From Kiritimatiellia bacterium (GTDB lineage: Bacteria; Verrucomicrobiota; Kiritimatiellia; RFP12; UBA1067), in the NCBI GenBank assembly GCA_017405115.1, contig JAFRBA010000034.1, positions 1 to 6,535 of the forward strand: a DNA stretch of 6,535 bases. Reading direction: 5' to 3'. A program made the translations under genes and the position numbers. Shown here one piece after another: positions 309 to 6,332 of the stretch (its first letter is position 1; the number at the start of each line of letters is the position of its first letter). The notes under the pieces are model-generated. The model did no database searches, was not told the DNA's origin, and saw only the letters and a program-made list of their open reading frames with translations.

Positions 309-2036
309 GTGCGTGAGCGCAAAGGCGCGTTCTTTACACCGCAGATGTGGGTGCAGCTGTCGCAGCGGTATTTTTCACTTGTGCTTGGCGAGAGATGGCA
401 AGACGAATACGACATCTGGGACTGCTGCGGCGGGACAGGCAACCTTGAGGTCGGACTCGTGAACAAATACCGCATCTGGGTATCAACGCTCGACCAGCAG
501 GACGTTGACGTGATGCACGAGCGCATCAAAAACGGCGCGAACCTCCTCGAAAGCCACGTGTTTCGTTTCGACTTCCTCAACGACTCCTTTGACAAGCTGC
601 CGCAGGGCCTGAAGGACATAATCTTCAACCCAGCCCGCCGCCGCAAGTTCGTCATCTACATCAATCCTCCGTATGCGGAAGCAGGAGACATCCGCCAAAG
701 GACGGGCACGGGGCAGAACAAGACAGATGTATCGGTAGTGCATTCGACTTACGACCGGTATGTGGATAAAATAGGACTTGCGGGGCGTGAACTTTTCGCG
801 CAGTTTCTGATGCGCATACGAGACGAGATCCCAAGTTGCATTGTGGGGCAGTTCTCTAAGTTGAAGCATCTGCAATCGCCGAACTTCAAGGCGTTCAGGC
901 AAGAGTTTCACGGTGCGTTGGAGAAGTGCTTCCTCGTTACAGCTGACACTTTCGACAACGTGAAGGGCAAGTTCCCGATAGGTTTCTTCGTGTGGCGGCT
1001 GGGAGAGGGCACGTTTACCGAGACGACGGCGGACGTGTACGACCGCAATGGCGAGTTCATTGGCGTAAAGACGCTTCTTTCTTATGATAACGAGCACTCA
1101 ATCAACGATTGGCTCATAGAGACGCGCAATCGGCCATCGATGTTGCAACTTGGTTTTCTCTCAACGCGGGCACATGATGTTCAGGACATAAATACGGTTT
1201 ACATTAAGCGTGACAAGGCGCTAATCAAATCAGCTCGTGGCACGTGGATCACAGACGCGAATGTCATCGAAGCTGGTGTGTACATGGGTGTCTGCCACAG
1301 CATAGAGGTCGATTGGTTGAATGACCGCGACCAATTCCTCTATCCGGGTAATGGCTGGAATGATGACGTAGAATTTCAGACGGATTGTCTTGTGTTCACC
1401 CTTTTCTCCGGTGCTAACTATGTCAAGTCCGCAGATGGCGTGAACCACTGGATTCCATTCACGGAGGAAGAGGTCGGGGCGAAGGACTGCTTTGCAAGCC
1501 ACTTCATGGGCGACCTTATAAGCGGTAGGGCGGTCTCGACGAAACCGTCACAGACGGGAACGGCGGCATCATCGATGCCGCCCTACCAGGTCGAACTGTT
1601 TGCGGACGCGCGGGACGCGCGTCCCTACCAGGCATCTACCCTCCAAGACTCAAAAACTCCCAGCGGCGAAAGCAATGCCACGTCAAGACCTCACAAGACT
1701 GTAAATTCTGTTGGTCCCGTTAAAAACGACTCTGAGACTCTGTGTCTCTGCGTTAAAGGCAATCTTTCTCCCGCCGCCCGTGCCGTGCTTGAAGCTGGGC
1801 GCGAGCTCTGGCGCTACTACCACGCCCAGCCGAACGCCAACCCCAACGCCTCCTACTACGACATACGACTCCACTTTCAAGGGATGAAGAAGACCGCCTC
1901 CGGCAAAGAGCAGATGAACGCCACATCCTCCGACGAAACATACAATGCGCTTCTCGCCAACCTGCGAGCCGCACACAAAACCCTTGCCGCCCAGATTGTG
2001 CCAAAGGTGTATGCGTACGGGTTCTTGAAGCGATAA
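309..2036 (+). CDS. Adenine-specific (N6) DNA methyltransferase, restriction-modification type, body of a gene interrupted upstream
   Basis: This part carries the catalytic domain of a class I SAM-dependent DNA methyltransferase that would methylate the adenine amino group in a DNA target. Numbering from the GTG at 309: FFTP at residues 8-11 (motif X-like), WDCCGGTGNLE at 37-47 (motif I, SAM binding), INPPY at 118-122 (motif IV, catalytic; NPPY is typical of N6-adenine enzymes), and a conserved-looking block about 135-235 ending in NVKGKFPIGFFVW. Residues about 240-400 may recognise the target. A low-complexity linker (about 405-480) precedes a C-terminal domain (about 485-575, including ELWRYYHAQPNANPNASYYDIR). 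The GTG at 309 is not a convincing start: it lies inside DVRERKG and has no properly spaced ribosome binding site. The frame is open back to 267, and beyond that stop to position 3. The gene is probably broken or misread at 264-266. It could be a type I- or IIG-like enzyme; no nuclease partner is visible. Confidence 0.88.
   Translation: MRERKGAFFTPQMWVQLSQRYFSLVLGERWQDEYDIWDCCGGTGNLEVGLVNKYRIWVSTLDQQDVDVMHERIKNGANLLESHVFRFDFLNDSFDKLPQGLKDIIFNPARRRKFVIYINPPYAEAGDIRQRTGTGQNKTDVSVVHSTYDRYVDKIGLAGRELFAQFLMRIRDEIPSCIVGQFSKLKHLQSPNFKAFRQEFHGALEKCFLVTADTFDNVKGKFPIGFFVWRLGEGTFTETTADVYDRNGEFIGVKTLLSYDNEHSINDWLIETRNRPSMLQLGFLSTRAHDVQDINTVYIKRDKALIKSARGTWITDANVIEAGVYMGVCHSIEVDWLNDRDQFLYPGNGWNDDVEFQTDCLVFTLFSGANYVKSADGVNHWIPFTEEEVGAKDCFASHFMGDLISGRAVSTKPSQTGTAASSMPPYQVELFADARDARPYQASTLQDSKTPSGESNATSRPHKTVNSVGPVKNDSETLCLCVKGNLSPAARAVLEAGRELWRYYHAQPNANPNASYYDIRLHFQGMKKTASGKEQMNATSSDETYNALLANLRAAHKTLAAQIVPKVYAYGFLKR
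1524..1587. repeat. Nested inverted repeats, REP-like palindromic element inside the methyltransferase linker
   Basis: GGTAGGGCGG (1524-1533) is matched by its exact reverse complement CCGCCCTACC (1578-1587). Nested inside, GGCGGCATC (1562-1570) and GATGCCGCC (1574-1582) form a perfect 9-base stem around a 3-base loop. The two structures share the right-hand GCCGCC, so they are mutually exclusive folds. The stretch is translated in frame as a Ser/Thr/Ala/Gly-rich linker. Such layered palindromes are unlike the surrounding coding DNA and look like an inserted dispersed element. That it is dispersed in the genome is inference. Confidence 0.65.
1604..1632. repeat. 14-base perfect palindrome with tandem 9-mers, second palindromic unit in the linker
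   Basis: GGGACGCGCGTCCC (1612-1625) is a perfect palindrome. GGACGCGCG occurs twice in tandem at 1604-1612 and 1613-1621. The 10-mer CCCTACCAGG ends this unit (1623-1632) and also ends the preceding inverted repeat (1581-1590), so the two palindromic units share the same right edge. It encodes DARDARPYQA in the methyltransferase frame. The shared edge suggests that both units belong to one repeat family. Confidence 0.6.
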
Positions 2037-4924: not shown

Positions 4925-5011
4925 GCCACAAATCACCGAATGGCGGAGCCACAAAACGCCGAATGAGATCACTATAAAACGCCGAATGAAATTGCCACAA
5001 GACACCGAATG
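4925..5011. repeat. Iteron-like array: four 18-base direct repeats at exact 23-base pitch, upstream of the ATPase promoter
   Basis: Copies lie at 4925-4942, 4948-4965, 4971-4988 and 4994-5011. The consensus is GCCACAAAACRCCGAATG. CCGAATG, the C three bases into the ACRC part, and several A positions are invariant. The third copy departs at its 5' end (ACTATAAAAC). The 5-base spacers (GCGGA, AGATC, AAATT) are not conserved, so selection acts on the 18-base unit and its phasing. The array ends one base before the -35 box at 5013. It is therefore most likely an operator or activator array for the ATPase gene. An iteron-type binding site for the ATPase itself is a more speculative reading. The pitch is not a multiple of three, so it is not protein-coding. 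Units and spacers are too short for a CRISPR. Confidence 0.85.
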
Positions 5012-5012
5012 G

Positions 5013-5042
5013 TTGACCGATGCGCACAGAATATGATATAAT
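5013..5042 (+). promoter_or_regulatory. Strong promoter of the COG1373-type ATPase gene
   Basis: TTGACC (5013-5018), an 18-base spacer and TATAAT (5037-5042) with TGA just before it (extended -10) give a near-consensus sigma-70-type promoter. Transcription should start near 5049-5050, two or three bases before the ATG at 5052. The mRNA would then be leaderless or nearly so. The repeat array directly upstream is placed to control this promoter. Confidence 0.8.
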
Positions 5043-5051
5043 ATCGCCGTT

Positions 5052-6332
5052 ATGACAAATTATAAGAACAGAATTTGTGATGCTCTTCTGAGGCAAAAGC
5101 TTCAGGGGGTAGGAGCCGTTTTGCTTGAAGGGCCTAAATGGTGCGGGAAGACCACTACCTGCGAACGACTGGCGAAAAGCGTACTGTACATGGGTGATCC
5201 TGTTGCCAAAGAGAAGAACTTGCTAATCGCAAGCGTGAACATAAACGAGTTGCTGGATGGTGACGAGCCAAGACTGATCGACGAATGGCAGCTTGCACCG
5301 AAGTTCTGGGATGCAGTGAGATTTAGAGTTGACCACAGCGAAGGTTTCGGGCATTTCATTCTCACAGGTTCTGTCGTGCCACCGGATACAAACGAGATTT
5401 CCCACACCGGAACAGGGCGCATCGTCCGTTTGAGGATGCGGCCGATGTCTCTTTGGGAGTCGCAAGAGTCCTCTGGATCTGTGAGCTTGGGAGCGTTGAT
5501 GAACGGTGAAATGGTTGGCATTGCCAGATGTCAGTCGCGAAGCCTTTCCGAAATGGCATATCTCGTCTGTCGTGGTGGATGGCCTGTCGCTGTCGGACAG
5601 CAGGGCGACATGGCGCTGGAGCGGGCCCAGGAGTATTACGAAGCGACTGTCGAATCCGACATGTCGAAGGTTGACAATGTGCCGCGGGATCCTGAACGCG
5701 TCAGACGTTTGATGCGTTCATACGCTCGACTTCAGTCAACACAGGCAAAGCTGACCGCCATAAAGCAGGACATGATCGAGCACGACGTGCATGGTCTGGA
5801 CGAAGATACCGTAAAGTCGTACATCGGAGCCCTGAAGAAACTCTTCGTCATTGAGGATTCCCCCGCGTGGTGTCCATGTCTCCGCTCAAAGGCTGTCATA
5901 CGCACGAGCGATACGAGGTATTTTGCCGATCCGTCGGTGATTGCTGCCGCGTTGGGCATCGGGCCAGGGGACATGATGCGCGATCCTCGCAGTTTCGGCA
6001 ATTTCTTCGAAACCCTGGCAATGCGTGACTTGCGGTGCTATGCAGACGCAATCGGAGGTTCTGTTTCGCATTATCTCGACGCAAACGGCCTTGAATGCGA
6101 TGCCATCGTCCATCTTCGCGACGGGCGCTTCGGCCTTGTGGAGATAAAGCTGGGCGGCAAGGCGTTGATAGACGAGGGAGTATCCACTCTTAACGCGCTG
6201 GCTGATATTGTGGATGTGGACAAGATGAAAAAACCAGCGTTCAAGATGATTCTCACGGCTGTAGGTGATTTCGCCTATGCTCGACCTGAGGACGGTATTG
6301 TGGTCTGCCCCATATCGGCACTTAAGCCATAG
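5052..6332 (+). CDS. COG1373-type ATP-binding protein: AAA_14 ATPase with DUF4143 C-terminal domain
   Basis: The product is 426 residues, the usual length of the family, with no signal peptide or membrane segment, so it is cytoplasmic. The AAA_14 domain has Walker A GPKWCGKT (27-34), Walker B LIDEWQ (75-80, acidic Asp77-Glu78) and sensor-1-like FILTGS (102-107). DUF4143 follows (about 190-400). It ends in a PD-(D/E)XK-nuclease-like signature: Asp350 in ECDAIV, then Glu364 and Lys366 in VEIKLG. All key residues are kept, so it looks functional. ATG 5052 fits the usual family start, which runs straight into the helix before Walker A. There is no Shine-Dalgarno, and the -10 box ends ten bases upstream, implying leaderless translation. 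Proteins of this family are frequent, scattered and multicopy in gut bacteria and archaea. Their role is not established; defence, a toxin-like function or mobile-element maintenance are inferences. Confidence 0.92.
   Translation: MTNYKNRICDALLRQKLQGVGAVLLEGPKWCGKTTTCERLAKSVLYMGDPVAKEKNLLIASVNINELLDGDEPRLIDEWQLAPKFWDAVRFRVDHSEGFGHFILTGSVVPPDTNEISHTGTGRIVRLRMRPMSLWESQESSGSVSLGALMNGEMVGIARCQSRSLSEMAYLVCRGGWPVAVGQQGDMALERAQEYYEATVESDMSKVDNVPRDPERVRRLMRSYARLQSTQAKLTAIKQDMIEHDVHGLDEDTVKSYIGALKKLFVIEDSPAWCPCLRSKAVIRTSDTRYFADPSVIAAALGIGPGDMMRDPRSFGNFFETLAMRDLRCYADAIGGSVSHYLDANGLECDAIVHLRDGRFGLVEIKLGGKALIDEGVSTLNALADIVDVDKMKKPAFKMILTAVGDFAYARPEDGIVVCPISALKP

What the first reader, a model, noticed from the sequence alone, without database searches (positions are those of the whole stretch)
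4925..5042. Four-copy, exactly phased 23-base repeat array docked onto the promoter of a COG1373-type ATPase
Four 18-base units recur at exactly 23 bases with non-conserved 5-base spacers, and the last unit ends one base before a near-consensus promoter. The exact phasing and the invariant CCGAATG core point to a repeated protein-binding site. The gene driven from it encodes an ATPase with a nuclease-like domain. This suggests a self-contained module: array, promoter and effector, perhaps with the effector or an unlinked factor reading the array. I know of no described system with this exact layout.
Basis: partly seen in the sequence, partly recalled or inferred. Interest (0 to 1): 0.72.

Follow-up and report, generated by a model that had tools for sequence, protein, structure and literature searches.

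The report
Nuclease gene reading its own repeats
A very common but untested candidate phage-defence gene carries, just before its promoter, a short row of repeats spaced 23 bases apart that the gene's own protein appears to recognise, which gives a first handle on how this gene family is controlled and how it spreads.

Summary
In detail: four units at 4925-5011, pitch 23 bp, last unit one base before a strong -35. It is not local. Of 82 testable relatives of the downstream AAA_14-DUF4143 gene, 80 exceed a 99% shuffle threshold, 78 at lag 23 and 2 at 22; control genes 25 of 372. An independent set gives 109 of 118 at lag 23. By record titles the hosts span several phyla. Repeat sequence diverges while pitch stays. 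Repeat bases covary with two protein sites: residue 344 (K/R with G3/C4), beside the PD-(D/E)xK residues, and residue 252 (D/E with G14), in the predicted winged-helix recognition helix; each ranks first of 96 and 94 columns in independent contrasts (12 concordant, 0 reverse). One exact 14-base unit version occurs only inside arrays in 12 genomes (19 of 19). Best reading: an array-promoter-gene module whose protein reads its own array with two heads and regulates itself, probably by repression. The protein matches PADLOC candidate PDC-S01, reported as one of the commonest defence candidates. A sister DUF4143 class has 32-33 bp arrays. Binding, repression and defence are untested.

The parts
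4925..4942 (+). array unit 1 (GCCACAAATCACCGAATG)
4948..4965 (+). array unit 2 (GCCACAAAACGCCGAATG)
4971..4988 (+). array unit 3 (ACTATAAAACGCCGAATG, most diverged)
4994..5011 (+). array unit 4 (GCCACAAGACACCGAATG), promoter-proximal; its 23-bp register runs into the -35
5013..5018 (+). -35 hexamer TTGACC
   Evidence: same placement in many relatives
5037..5042 (+). -10 hexamer TATAAT with TG before it
5052..6332 (+). AAA_14-DUF4143 (COG1373-type, PADLOC PDC-S01) gene, 426 aa
5115..5459 (+). AAA_14 ATPase domain (residues 22-136, P-loop GPKWCGKT)
5691..5840 (+). predicted winged-helix region (residues 214-263); helix 251-263 read by me as recognition helix; residue 252 (5805-5807) covaries with unit position 14
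6081..6083 (+). codon of residue 344, covaries with unit positions 3 and 4
6093..6149 (+). PD-(D/E)xK-like residues E348, D350, E364, K366, invariant in the 78-sequence alignment
   Evidence: the motif name is recalled

Best explanation
The window holds a complete autonomous module: array, promoter, and one gene for an ATPase / winged-helix / nuclease-like protein. The protein most likely binds its own array, one protomer per 23-bp unit, with two reading heads about one helical turn apart: the winged helix on the CCGAATG half and a loop of the nuclease-like domain on the GCC half. Because the last unit abuts or overlaps the -35, occupancy most likely represses the strong promoter and keeps a potentially harmful nuclease low; ATP state or a trigger such as phage infection would release it. 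Shown here: the array, its conservation, its placement, the covariation, the lack of other exact sites in 12 genomes, and the module borders. Inferred: binding by the gene's own protein, one protomer per unit, repression, release by a trigger, and a defence role.
For: Array upstream of relatives: best lag 22 or 23 in 82 of 82 testable of 84 (80 above threshold) against 25 of 372 control genes above it; independent set 109 of 118 at lag 23; 6 of 6 of the first plasmid isolates opened. Placement: of 76 loci, 44 have a sigma-70-like promoter within 90 bp of the last unit and in 39 of these the -35 starts 0-5 bp after the unit; of 71 control windows 4 have such a promoter, 0 at that offset. Covariation: first set (71 loci) top pairs 344-3 and 252-14, K/R344 with G3 in 43 of 46 against 0 of 25 others; independent set ranks 2 (344-4), 23 (252-14) and 36 (344-3) of 9372 pairs; both sets together (146 loci) K/R344 with G3 82 of 93 against 6 of 53, D/E252 with G14 98 of 108 against 7 of 38, independent pairs 12 concordant, 0 reverse, 2 ties and 12, 0, 7, each first among 96 and 94 columns and best at those unit positions among 59 base features. 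No isolated exact sites: 19 of 19 hits in arrays, reversed control 1 hit. Homology between related loci mostly runs from the first unit to the stop codon: 79 of 106 pairs. Model pLDDT 92.3 with a helix arrangement of winged-helix kind.
Against: No binding, expression or cleavage data. Covariation is not contact. The groupings K/R and D/E and the bases tested were chosen after seeing the first set, which is part of the 146 loci; only the rank test is wholly independent. The sliding-window peak at the recognition helix did not recur in the second set, where the best windows were 281 and 336, and pair 340-5 did not replicate (rank 1016; R/K340 absent there). Residue 186 scored nearly as well as 344 for G3 (12-1-11). 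Of 118 independent loci 43 could not be parsed into three or more units and were dropped from covariation. An activator could also sit next to the -35; 15 of 76 loci showed neither promoter type, and the Bacteroidota-type search had no control. Three of 11 plasmid relatives opened lack the array.
Confidence: 0.7

Rival explanations
1. The protein reads its array but as an activator: occupied units next to the -35 recruit RNA polymerase, giving positive feedback once the protein is switched on.
For: The last unit lies right at the -35. In 10 of 17 loci with only a Bacteroidota-type -7 match, that element starts 14-16 bp after the last unit, so the array would take the place of the upstream promoter element.
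Against: Many promoters are already near consensus (15 of 44 score 11 or 12 of 12), which suits repression better than activation.
Confidence: 0.2
2. The array is the recognition, cutting or recombination site by which the module spreads or is exchanged (homing-like). Gene-less arrays are empty or vacated sites; stacked arrays record successive arrivals.
For: Module borders at first unit and stop codon in 79 of 106 pairs (rows). L080 and L121 are the same chromosomal site (96.6% over 1371 bp, 97.8% over 1002 bp) with and without the gene, and carry in-register mixed arrays. Pairs of units without a gene of this clade near L069, L074 and L044. Array fused to a gene remnant in L119. Invariant nuclease-like residues next to reading residue 344.
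Against: No target-site duplication or terminal repeat was established. Only a handful of gene-less arrays were seen. Ordinary recombination between repeats would give the same scars, and local alignments between diverged loci also tend to end where coding ends. The array sits at the promoter with fixed spacing, which mobility alone does not explain.
Confidence: 0.15
3. The array is read by a host factor (nucleoid protein or general regulator), not by the encoded protein.
For: Such direct-repeat operators exist (recalled).
Against: Paralogues in one genome carry different units (L012 and L080), and unit bases covary with residues of the encoded protein.
Confidence: 0.05
4. The array is transcribed and works as an RNA (guide or processed repeat RNA).
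For: Regular repeats beside a nuclease-like gene.
Against: Spacers of about 5 bp, an array upstream of the gene's promoter, mostly 3-5 units, and no Rfam family at gathering score in the window.
Confidence: 0.03

Closest known systems
PDC-S01 (PADLOC phage defence candidate; AAA_14-DUF4143 / COG1373 proteins)
   Same: Same protein family: PDLC04790 E 2.2e-52. PMC12988326 (passages seen) calls PDC-S01 the fourth most common defence across prokaryotes and describes an ATPase domain fused to the PD-(D/E)-X-K superfamily.
   Different: The words promoter and direct repeat do not occur in that paper's main text as held. The array is the new part.
Archaeal ATPases of solved structure (PAB2304, 2qen; SSO1545, 2fna), STAND-like (class name recalled)
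   Different: The matches end near residue 302; the nuclease-like domain and the array are not part of those matches.
Autoregulated operators and plasmid iterons with their Rep proteins (recalled)
   Same: Direct repeats of about two dozen bases at a promoter, read by the product of the adjacent gene.
   Different: No Rep domain, many copies per genome (5-47 DUF4143 matches in each of 16 genomes), and the inferred reader is an ATPase-nuclease with a second head in the nuclease-like domain.
CRISPR and TIGR-type repeat arrays (recalled)
   Same: Repeats beside a nuclease-like gene.
   Different: No variable spacers of guide length; fixed 23-bp pitch tied to the promoter.

Membership tests
PDC-S01 (PADLOC) | match to a PADLOC PDC-S01 model over most of its length | tested here: met
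   PDLC04790 E 2.2e-52, positions 8-387 of 422; the library gives no cut-off
PDC-S01 (PADLOC) | anti-phage activity | not testable with these tools
   no experiment; [quoted passage not shown]
COG1373-type AAA_14-DUF4143 ATPase | AAA_14 and DUF4143 domains in one protein | tested here: met
   both over Pfam gathering cut-offs
PD-(D/E)xK nuclease | conserved D...E-x-K residues | tested here: met
   E348, D350, E364, K366 invariant in 78 sequences; activity untested, motif recalled
STAND-like NTPase | ATPase plus winged-helix fold of archaeal/STAND type | tested here: inconclusive
   best fold matches 2qen and 2fna, then NLR and CED-4 chains; sequence motifs of the class not tested
Type II toxin-antitoxin pair | conserved small partner gene | tested here: inconclusive
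   neighbour ORFs of 80 aa or more: the largest families occur in 3 or 4 loci; 30-79 aa ORFs starting within 120 bp after the stop: found in 51 of 84 loci, one similar pair, from two 90% identical loci; small ORFs upstream not examined
Plasmid iteron replicon | Rep initiator domain | tested here: not met
   Pfam matches are AAA_14 and DUF4143 only
CRISPR/TIGR-type guide array | variable spacers of guide length between repeats | tested here: not met
   5-base spacers in the window, pitch 23

The most novel reading that the evidence does not exclude
DUF4143 ATPase-nucleases (PDC-S01) are a family of self-addressed modules. Each protein has its own DNA address, written as an array with a class-specific pitch (23 bp or 32-33 bp; perhaps a palindrome in others), read by two heads one of which belongs to the nuclease domain itself. 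The array is at once operator, assembly platform and identity tag: the protein assembles on it to stay silent, and the same address directs the nuclease, so that modules displace one another at arrays and exclude or home into DNA that carries their address.
Probability: 0.2. Interest if true: 0.95.

Novelty: new variant of a known kind. Interest (0 to 1): 0.82.

Why it matters
PDC-S01 is reported as the fourth most common defence across prokaryotes (PMC12988326, passage) and the most frequent individual locus in a rumen genome survey (PMC13356809, passage), yet my searches of the held library gave no paper on its control or target. A conserved array with a residue-to-base code gives a binding site to test, a way to tell cognate from foreign arrays, and probes for finding such genes. 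It also suggests that a nuclease-fold domain takes part in sequence reading, and that repeat pitch follows protein class.

Tried and rejected
Scattered repeat: not seen, 19 of 19 hits of one exact 14-base unit version lie in arrays; the reversed control pattern gave 1 hit. Diverged single sites were not searched genome-wide. Chance periodicity: rejected by shuffles and control genes. Among the high-scoring control genes, L049 at 6490 and L042 at 3198 proved to be AAA_14-DUF4143 genes themselves. Conserved operon partner: none found among ORFs of 80 aa or more, the largest neighbour families being in 3 or 4 loci, nor among small ORFs just downstream. Known RNA: no match at gathering score. Phage protein family: no PHROG match. 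Solved homologue by sequence: none up to E 0.1. Dimer pattern in viral contigs: none. Terminal inverted repeats or target-site duplication: flanks looked at by eye, nothing established.

Results against my reading: the recognition-helix window peak did not recur in the second set and pair 340-5 did not replicate. 8 of 118 independent loci fell below the array threshold, two of them with a best lag other than 23, and one locus above it has lag 25. Of 11 plasmid regions opened (chosen by me from 25 listed of 215 records) seven have a clear 23-bp lag, one a weak one (L319) and three none (L320, L321, L322). Two of five phage records were opened; both have lag 23. Of 106 pairs of related loci 27 do not show both module borders; six run well past the module, some of these being near-identical or shared sites, and 8 begin after the array. 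Palindromes are not clearly tied to one class: inverted repeat score 9 or more in 5 of 15 GPRQSGK, 17 of 56 other and 1 of 15 KWCGK genes.

Literature: DUF4143 (1 paper), COG1373 (7), AAA_14 (11, none on this family judging by titles), PDC-S01 (3), and two wider queries. Only passages were seen of PMC3861447, PMC10782964, PMC4406477, PMC12988326 and PMC13356809; the rest were search listings. No passage or listing seen describes an upstream array. This covers only the held open-access library.

Full report
OBSERVATION. The four-unit array is real: 18-base units at 4925, 4948, 4971 and 4994, 23 bp apart, 0 of 200 shuffles with four matches. A TTGACC-N18-TATAAT promoter begins one base after the last unit. 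The 426-aa gene that follows has AAA_14 and DUF4143 domains; its upstream neighbour, a DUF4838 gene, looks unrelated.

THE ARRAY BELONGS TO THE GENE. A protein-based search, blind to the repeat, gave 80 loci from genomes (the best 80 of 360) and 3 from viral contigs. For 82 of 84 (83 loci and the window; L003 and L005 had too little sequence) I scored the best self-match lag from 15 to 40 in up to 220 bp upstream. 80 exceeded the 99% level of shuffled sequence, 78 with lag 23 and two with lag 22; the other two had best lags 22 and 23 but fell just short. Of 372 other genes in the same loci 25 exceeded it, the highest at varied lags; two of these, L049 at 6490 (lag 23) and L042 at 3198 (lag 32), are AAA_14-DUF4143 genes themselves. 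L072 and L073 are near-identical. A second sample came from four searches over 148, 193, 299 and 301 genomes, some recurring, plus 54 of the 71 matches for which those searches gave no locus, fetched by my choice: 150 loci; 146 full length with enough upstream sequence; 136 under 90% identical to the first set; 118 after removing redundancy. 110 of 118 passed, 109 with lag 23 and one with lag 25; of the 8 below, 6 still had best lag 23. Plasmids of Bacteroides ovatus, B. uniformis, two Collinsella, Prosthecochloris (31% identical) and Lentilactobacillus (27%) have lag 23, 6 of 6. Five further plasmid regions gave one clear 23 (L323), one weak 23 (L319) and three without it (L320, L321, L322); two of five phage records were opened and gave 23. 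Host names are those of record titles; many are metagenome bins.

ANATOMY. Put in one register, the units read roughly GCCAAAT-NN-CCGAAYG followed by an A/T-rich tail; positions 5-7, 12 and 14-16 are best conserved, but subfamilies have their own versions. Arrays mostly have 3-5 units. Of 76 loci with three or more units, 44 have a sigma-70-like promoter near the last unit, in 39 with the -35 starting 0-5 bp after it (most often 3); of 71 control windows 4 have such a promoter and none at that offset. Another 17 have only a Bacteroidota-type -7 match (no control run), in 10 of them 14-16 bp after the unit; 15 show neither. The core promoter thus seems to change type with the host while the array keeps its place.

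WHO READS IT. In the first set (71 loci), with protein and repeat distances compared after allowing for overall protein distance, the best 15-residue window was 246-260 (r 0.378), over the helix 251-263 that I read in the AlphaFold model (pLDDT 92.3) as the third helix of a winged-helix fold. Mutual information put residue 344 with unit position 3 and residue 252 with position 14 on top. K/R at 344 goes with G3 in 43 of 46 loci, other residues in 0 of 25; D at 252 goes with G14 in 55 of 57. In the second set (75 of 118 that could be parsed into three or more units) the window peak did not recur (best 281, then 336), but the named pairs ranked 2 (344-4), 23 (252-14) and 36 (344-3) of 9372; 340-5 ranked 1016. 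With both sets together (146 loci) K/R344 has G3 in 82 of 93 and others in 6 of 53; D/E252 has G14 in 98 of 108 and others in 7 of 38. On a tree built without those columns, 14 independent pairs differ in K/R344: 12 change G3 the expected way, none the other way. For D/E252 and G14: 19 pairs, 12 and none. With the same groupings 344 ranks first of 96 columns and 252 first of 94; among 59 base features 344 picks G3 and C4, and 252 picks G14 and (inversely) C14. Residue 186 is a close second for G3 (12-1-11). The groupings were chosen on the first set, which is part of the 146, so these contrasts are not fully independent; the ranks are. Residue 344 lies four residues before E348 of the invariant E348, D350, E364, K366 set, so the nuclease-like domain seems to read the GCC half and the winged helix the CCGAATG half. 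Positions 3-4 and 14 are about one helical turn apart. That they are contacts is inference.

A PRIVATE SITE. One exact 14-base unit version hits 19 times in 7 of 12 relatives' genomes, always inside arrays; its reversed control hits once. The 23-bp dimer pattern hits 38 times in 8 of the 12, its reversed control none. These fall in 15 arrays: 13 upstream of a gene of this clade (in one, G001:C270, only residues 152 onward matched), one upstream of a C-terminal remnant (L119), one at a site without the gene (L121). Paralogues in one genome have different units (L012 and L080). Around 76 loci (712 kb) own-type units outside the array, with up to 2 mismatches, occur at 5 loci; permuted control 1 hit.

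A MODULE. Of 106 pairs of related loci aligned over more than 1250 bp at 70% or more, 79 start within 12 bp of the first unit of one partner and end within 30 bp of the stop codon (15 of 23 pairs at 85% or more); six run well past the module and 8 begin after the array. For example L018 with L023 (92%) starts 4 bp into the first unit and ends 1 bp after the stop. L080 and L121 are the same site (96.6% over 1371 bp, 97.8% over 1002 bp); L080 has two window-type units, four units of another type and the gene, while L121 has three unit types in register, a promoter and no ATPase gene. L028 and L069 are also mixed by eye. In L028 and L080 the promoter-proximal block fits the residue-344 rule and the distal block does not (my reading); in L069 this rule does not decide. 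L069 has two units right after its stop codon and L074 a gene-less pair with a similar 5' flank. This suggests turnover of modules at arrays; the mechanism is open.

WIDER FAMILY. I examined 90 of 270 DUF4143 matches in 16 genomes (30 returned, 60 chosen by me from the listed rows; several are first-set genes), of which 86 could be tested. The KWCGK P-loop class has lag 23 in 14 of 15; other P-loops have lag 32 or 33 in 35 of 56, another lag in 5 and none in 16; the GPRQSGK class has none in 15. Pitch thus follows protein class as judged by the P-loop.

Noticed in passing
L091, L093, L105-L107, L112 and others: DUF4143 genes with other P-loops (mostly GxRQxGK) carry upstream direct repeats of 32-33 bp pitch instead of 23 (35 of 56 in the 'other' class).
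   Followed up: partly
L085, L086, L088, L089, L102, L104 upstream of the gene: Some DUF4143 genes without direct repeats have palindromes near the promoter, such as GCAAATCTTAC...GTAAGATTTGC; not clearly tied to one class by the count.
   Followed up: partly
L121 1371-1680 against L080 4575-6408: Same chromosomal site in two genomes with and without the ATPase gene; the gene-less allele keeps a three-type stacked array and a promoter. A PF00144 (serine hydrolase type) frame follows, its front part in another frame.
   Followed up: partly
L119 about 1479-1810: Array fused directly to the last 70 or so residues of a gene of this clade: a degraded module.
   Followed up: partly
L069 5 and 28 bp after the stop codon; L074 about 1140 bp after; L044 about 4685 bp after: Pairs of array units without an adjacent downstream gene of this clade.
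   Followed up: partly
window 309-2036: 575-aa frame with no Pfam, NCBIfam, PADLOC or PHROG match at the limits used, holding an NPPYAE stretch like that of adenine methyltransferases (motif recalled); an 87-aa frame before it (3-266) may be its front part.
   Followed up: partly
L002 about 6290-6550: Directly downstream of the 23-bp module lies a repeat of about 33 bp pitch before another frame, so modules may sit head to tail.
   Followed up: no
PMC4406477 table (passage): Thermus thermophilus TT_P0211 (AAA 14, DUF4143) is listed with the value 6.6 in a section on changes of gene expression with plasmid DNA, downstream of a CRISPR locus.
   Followed up: no
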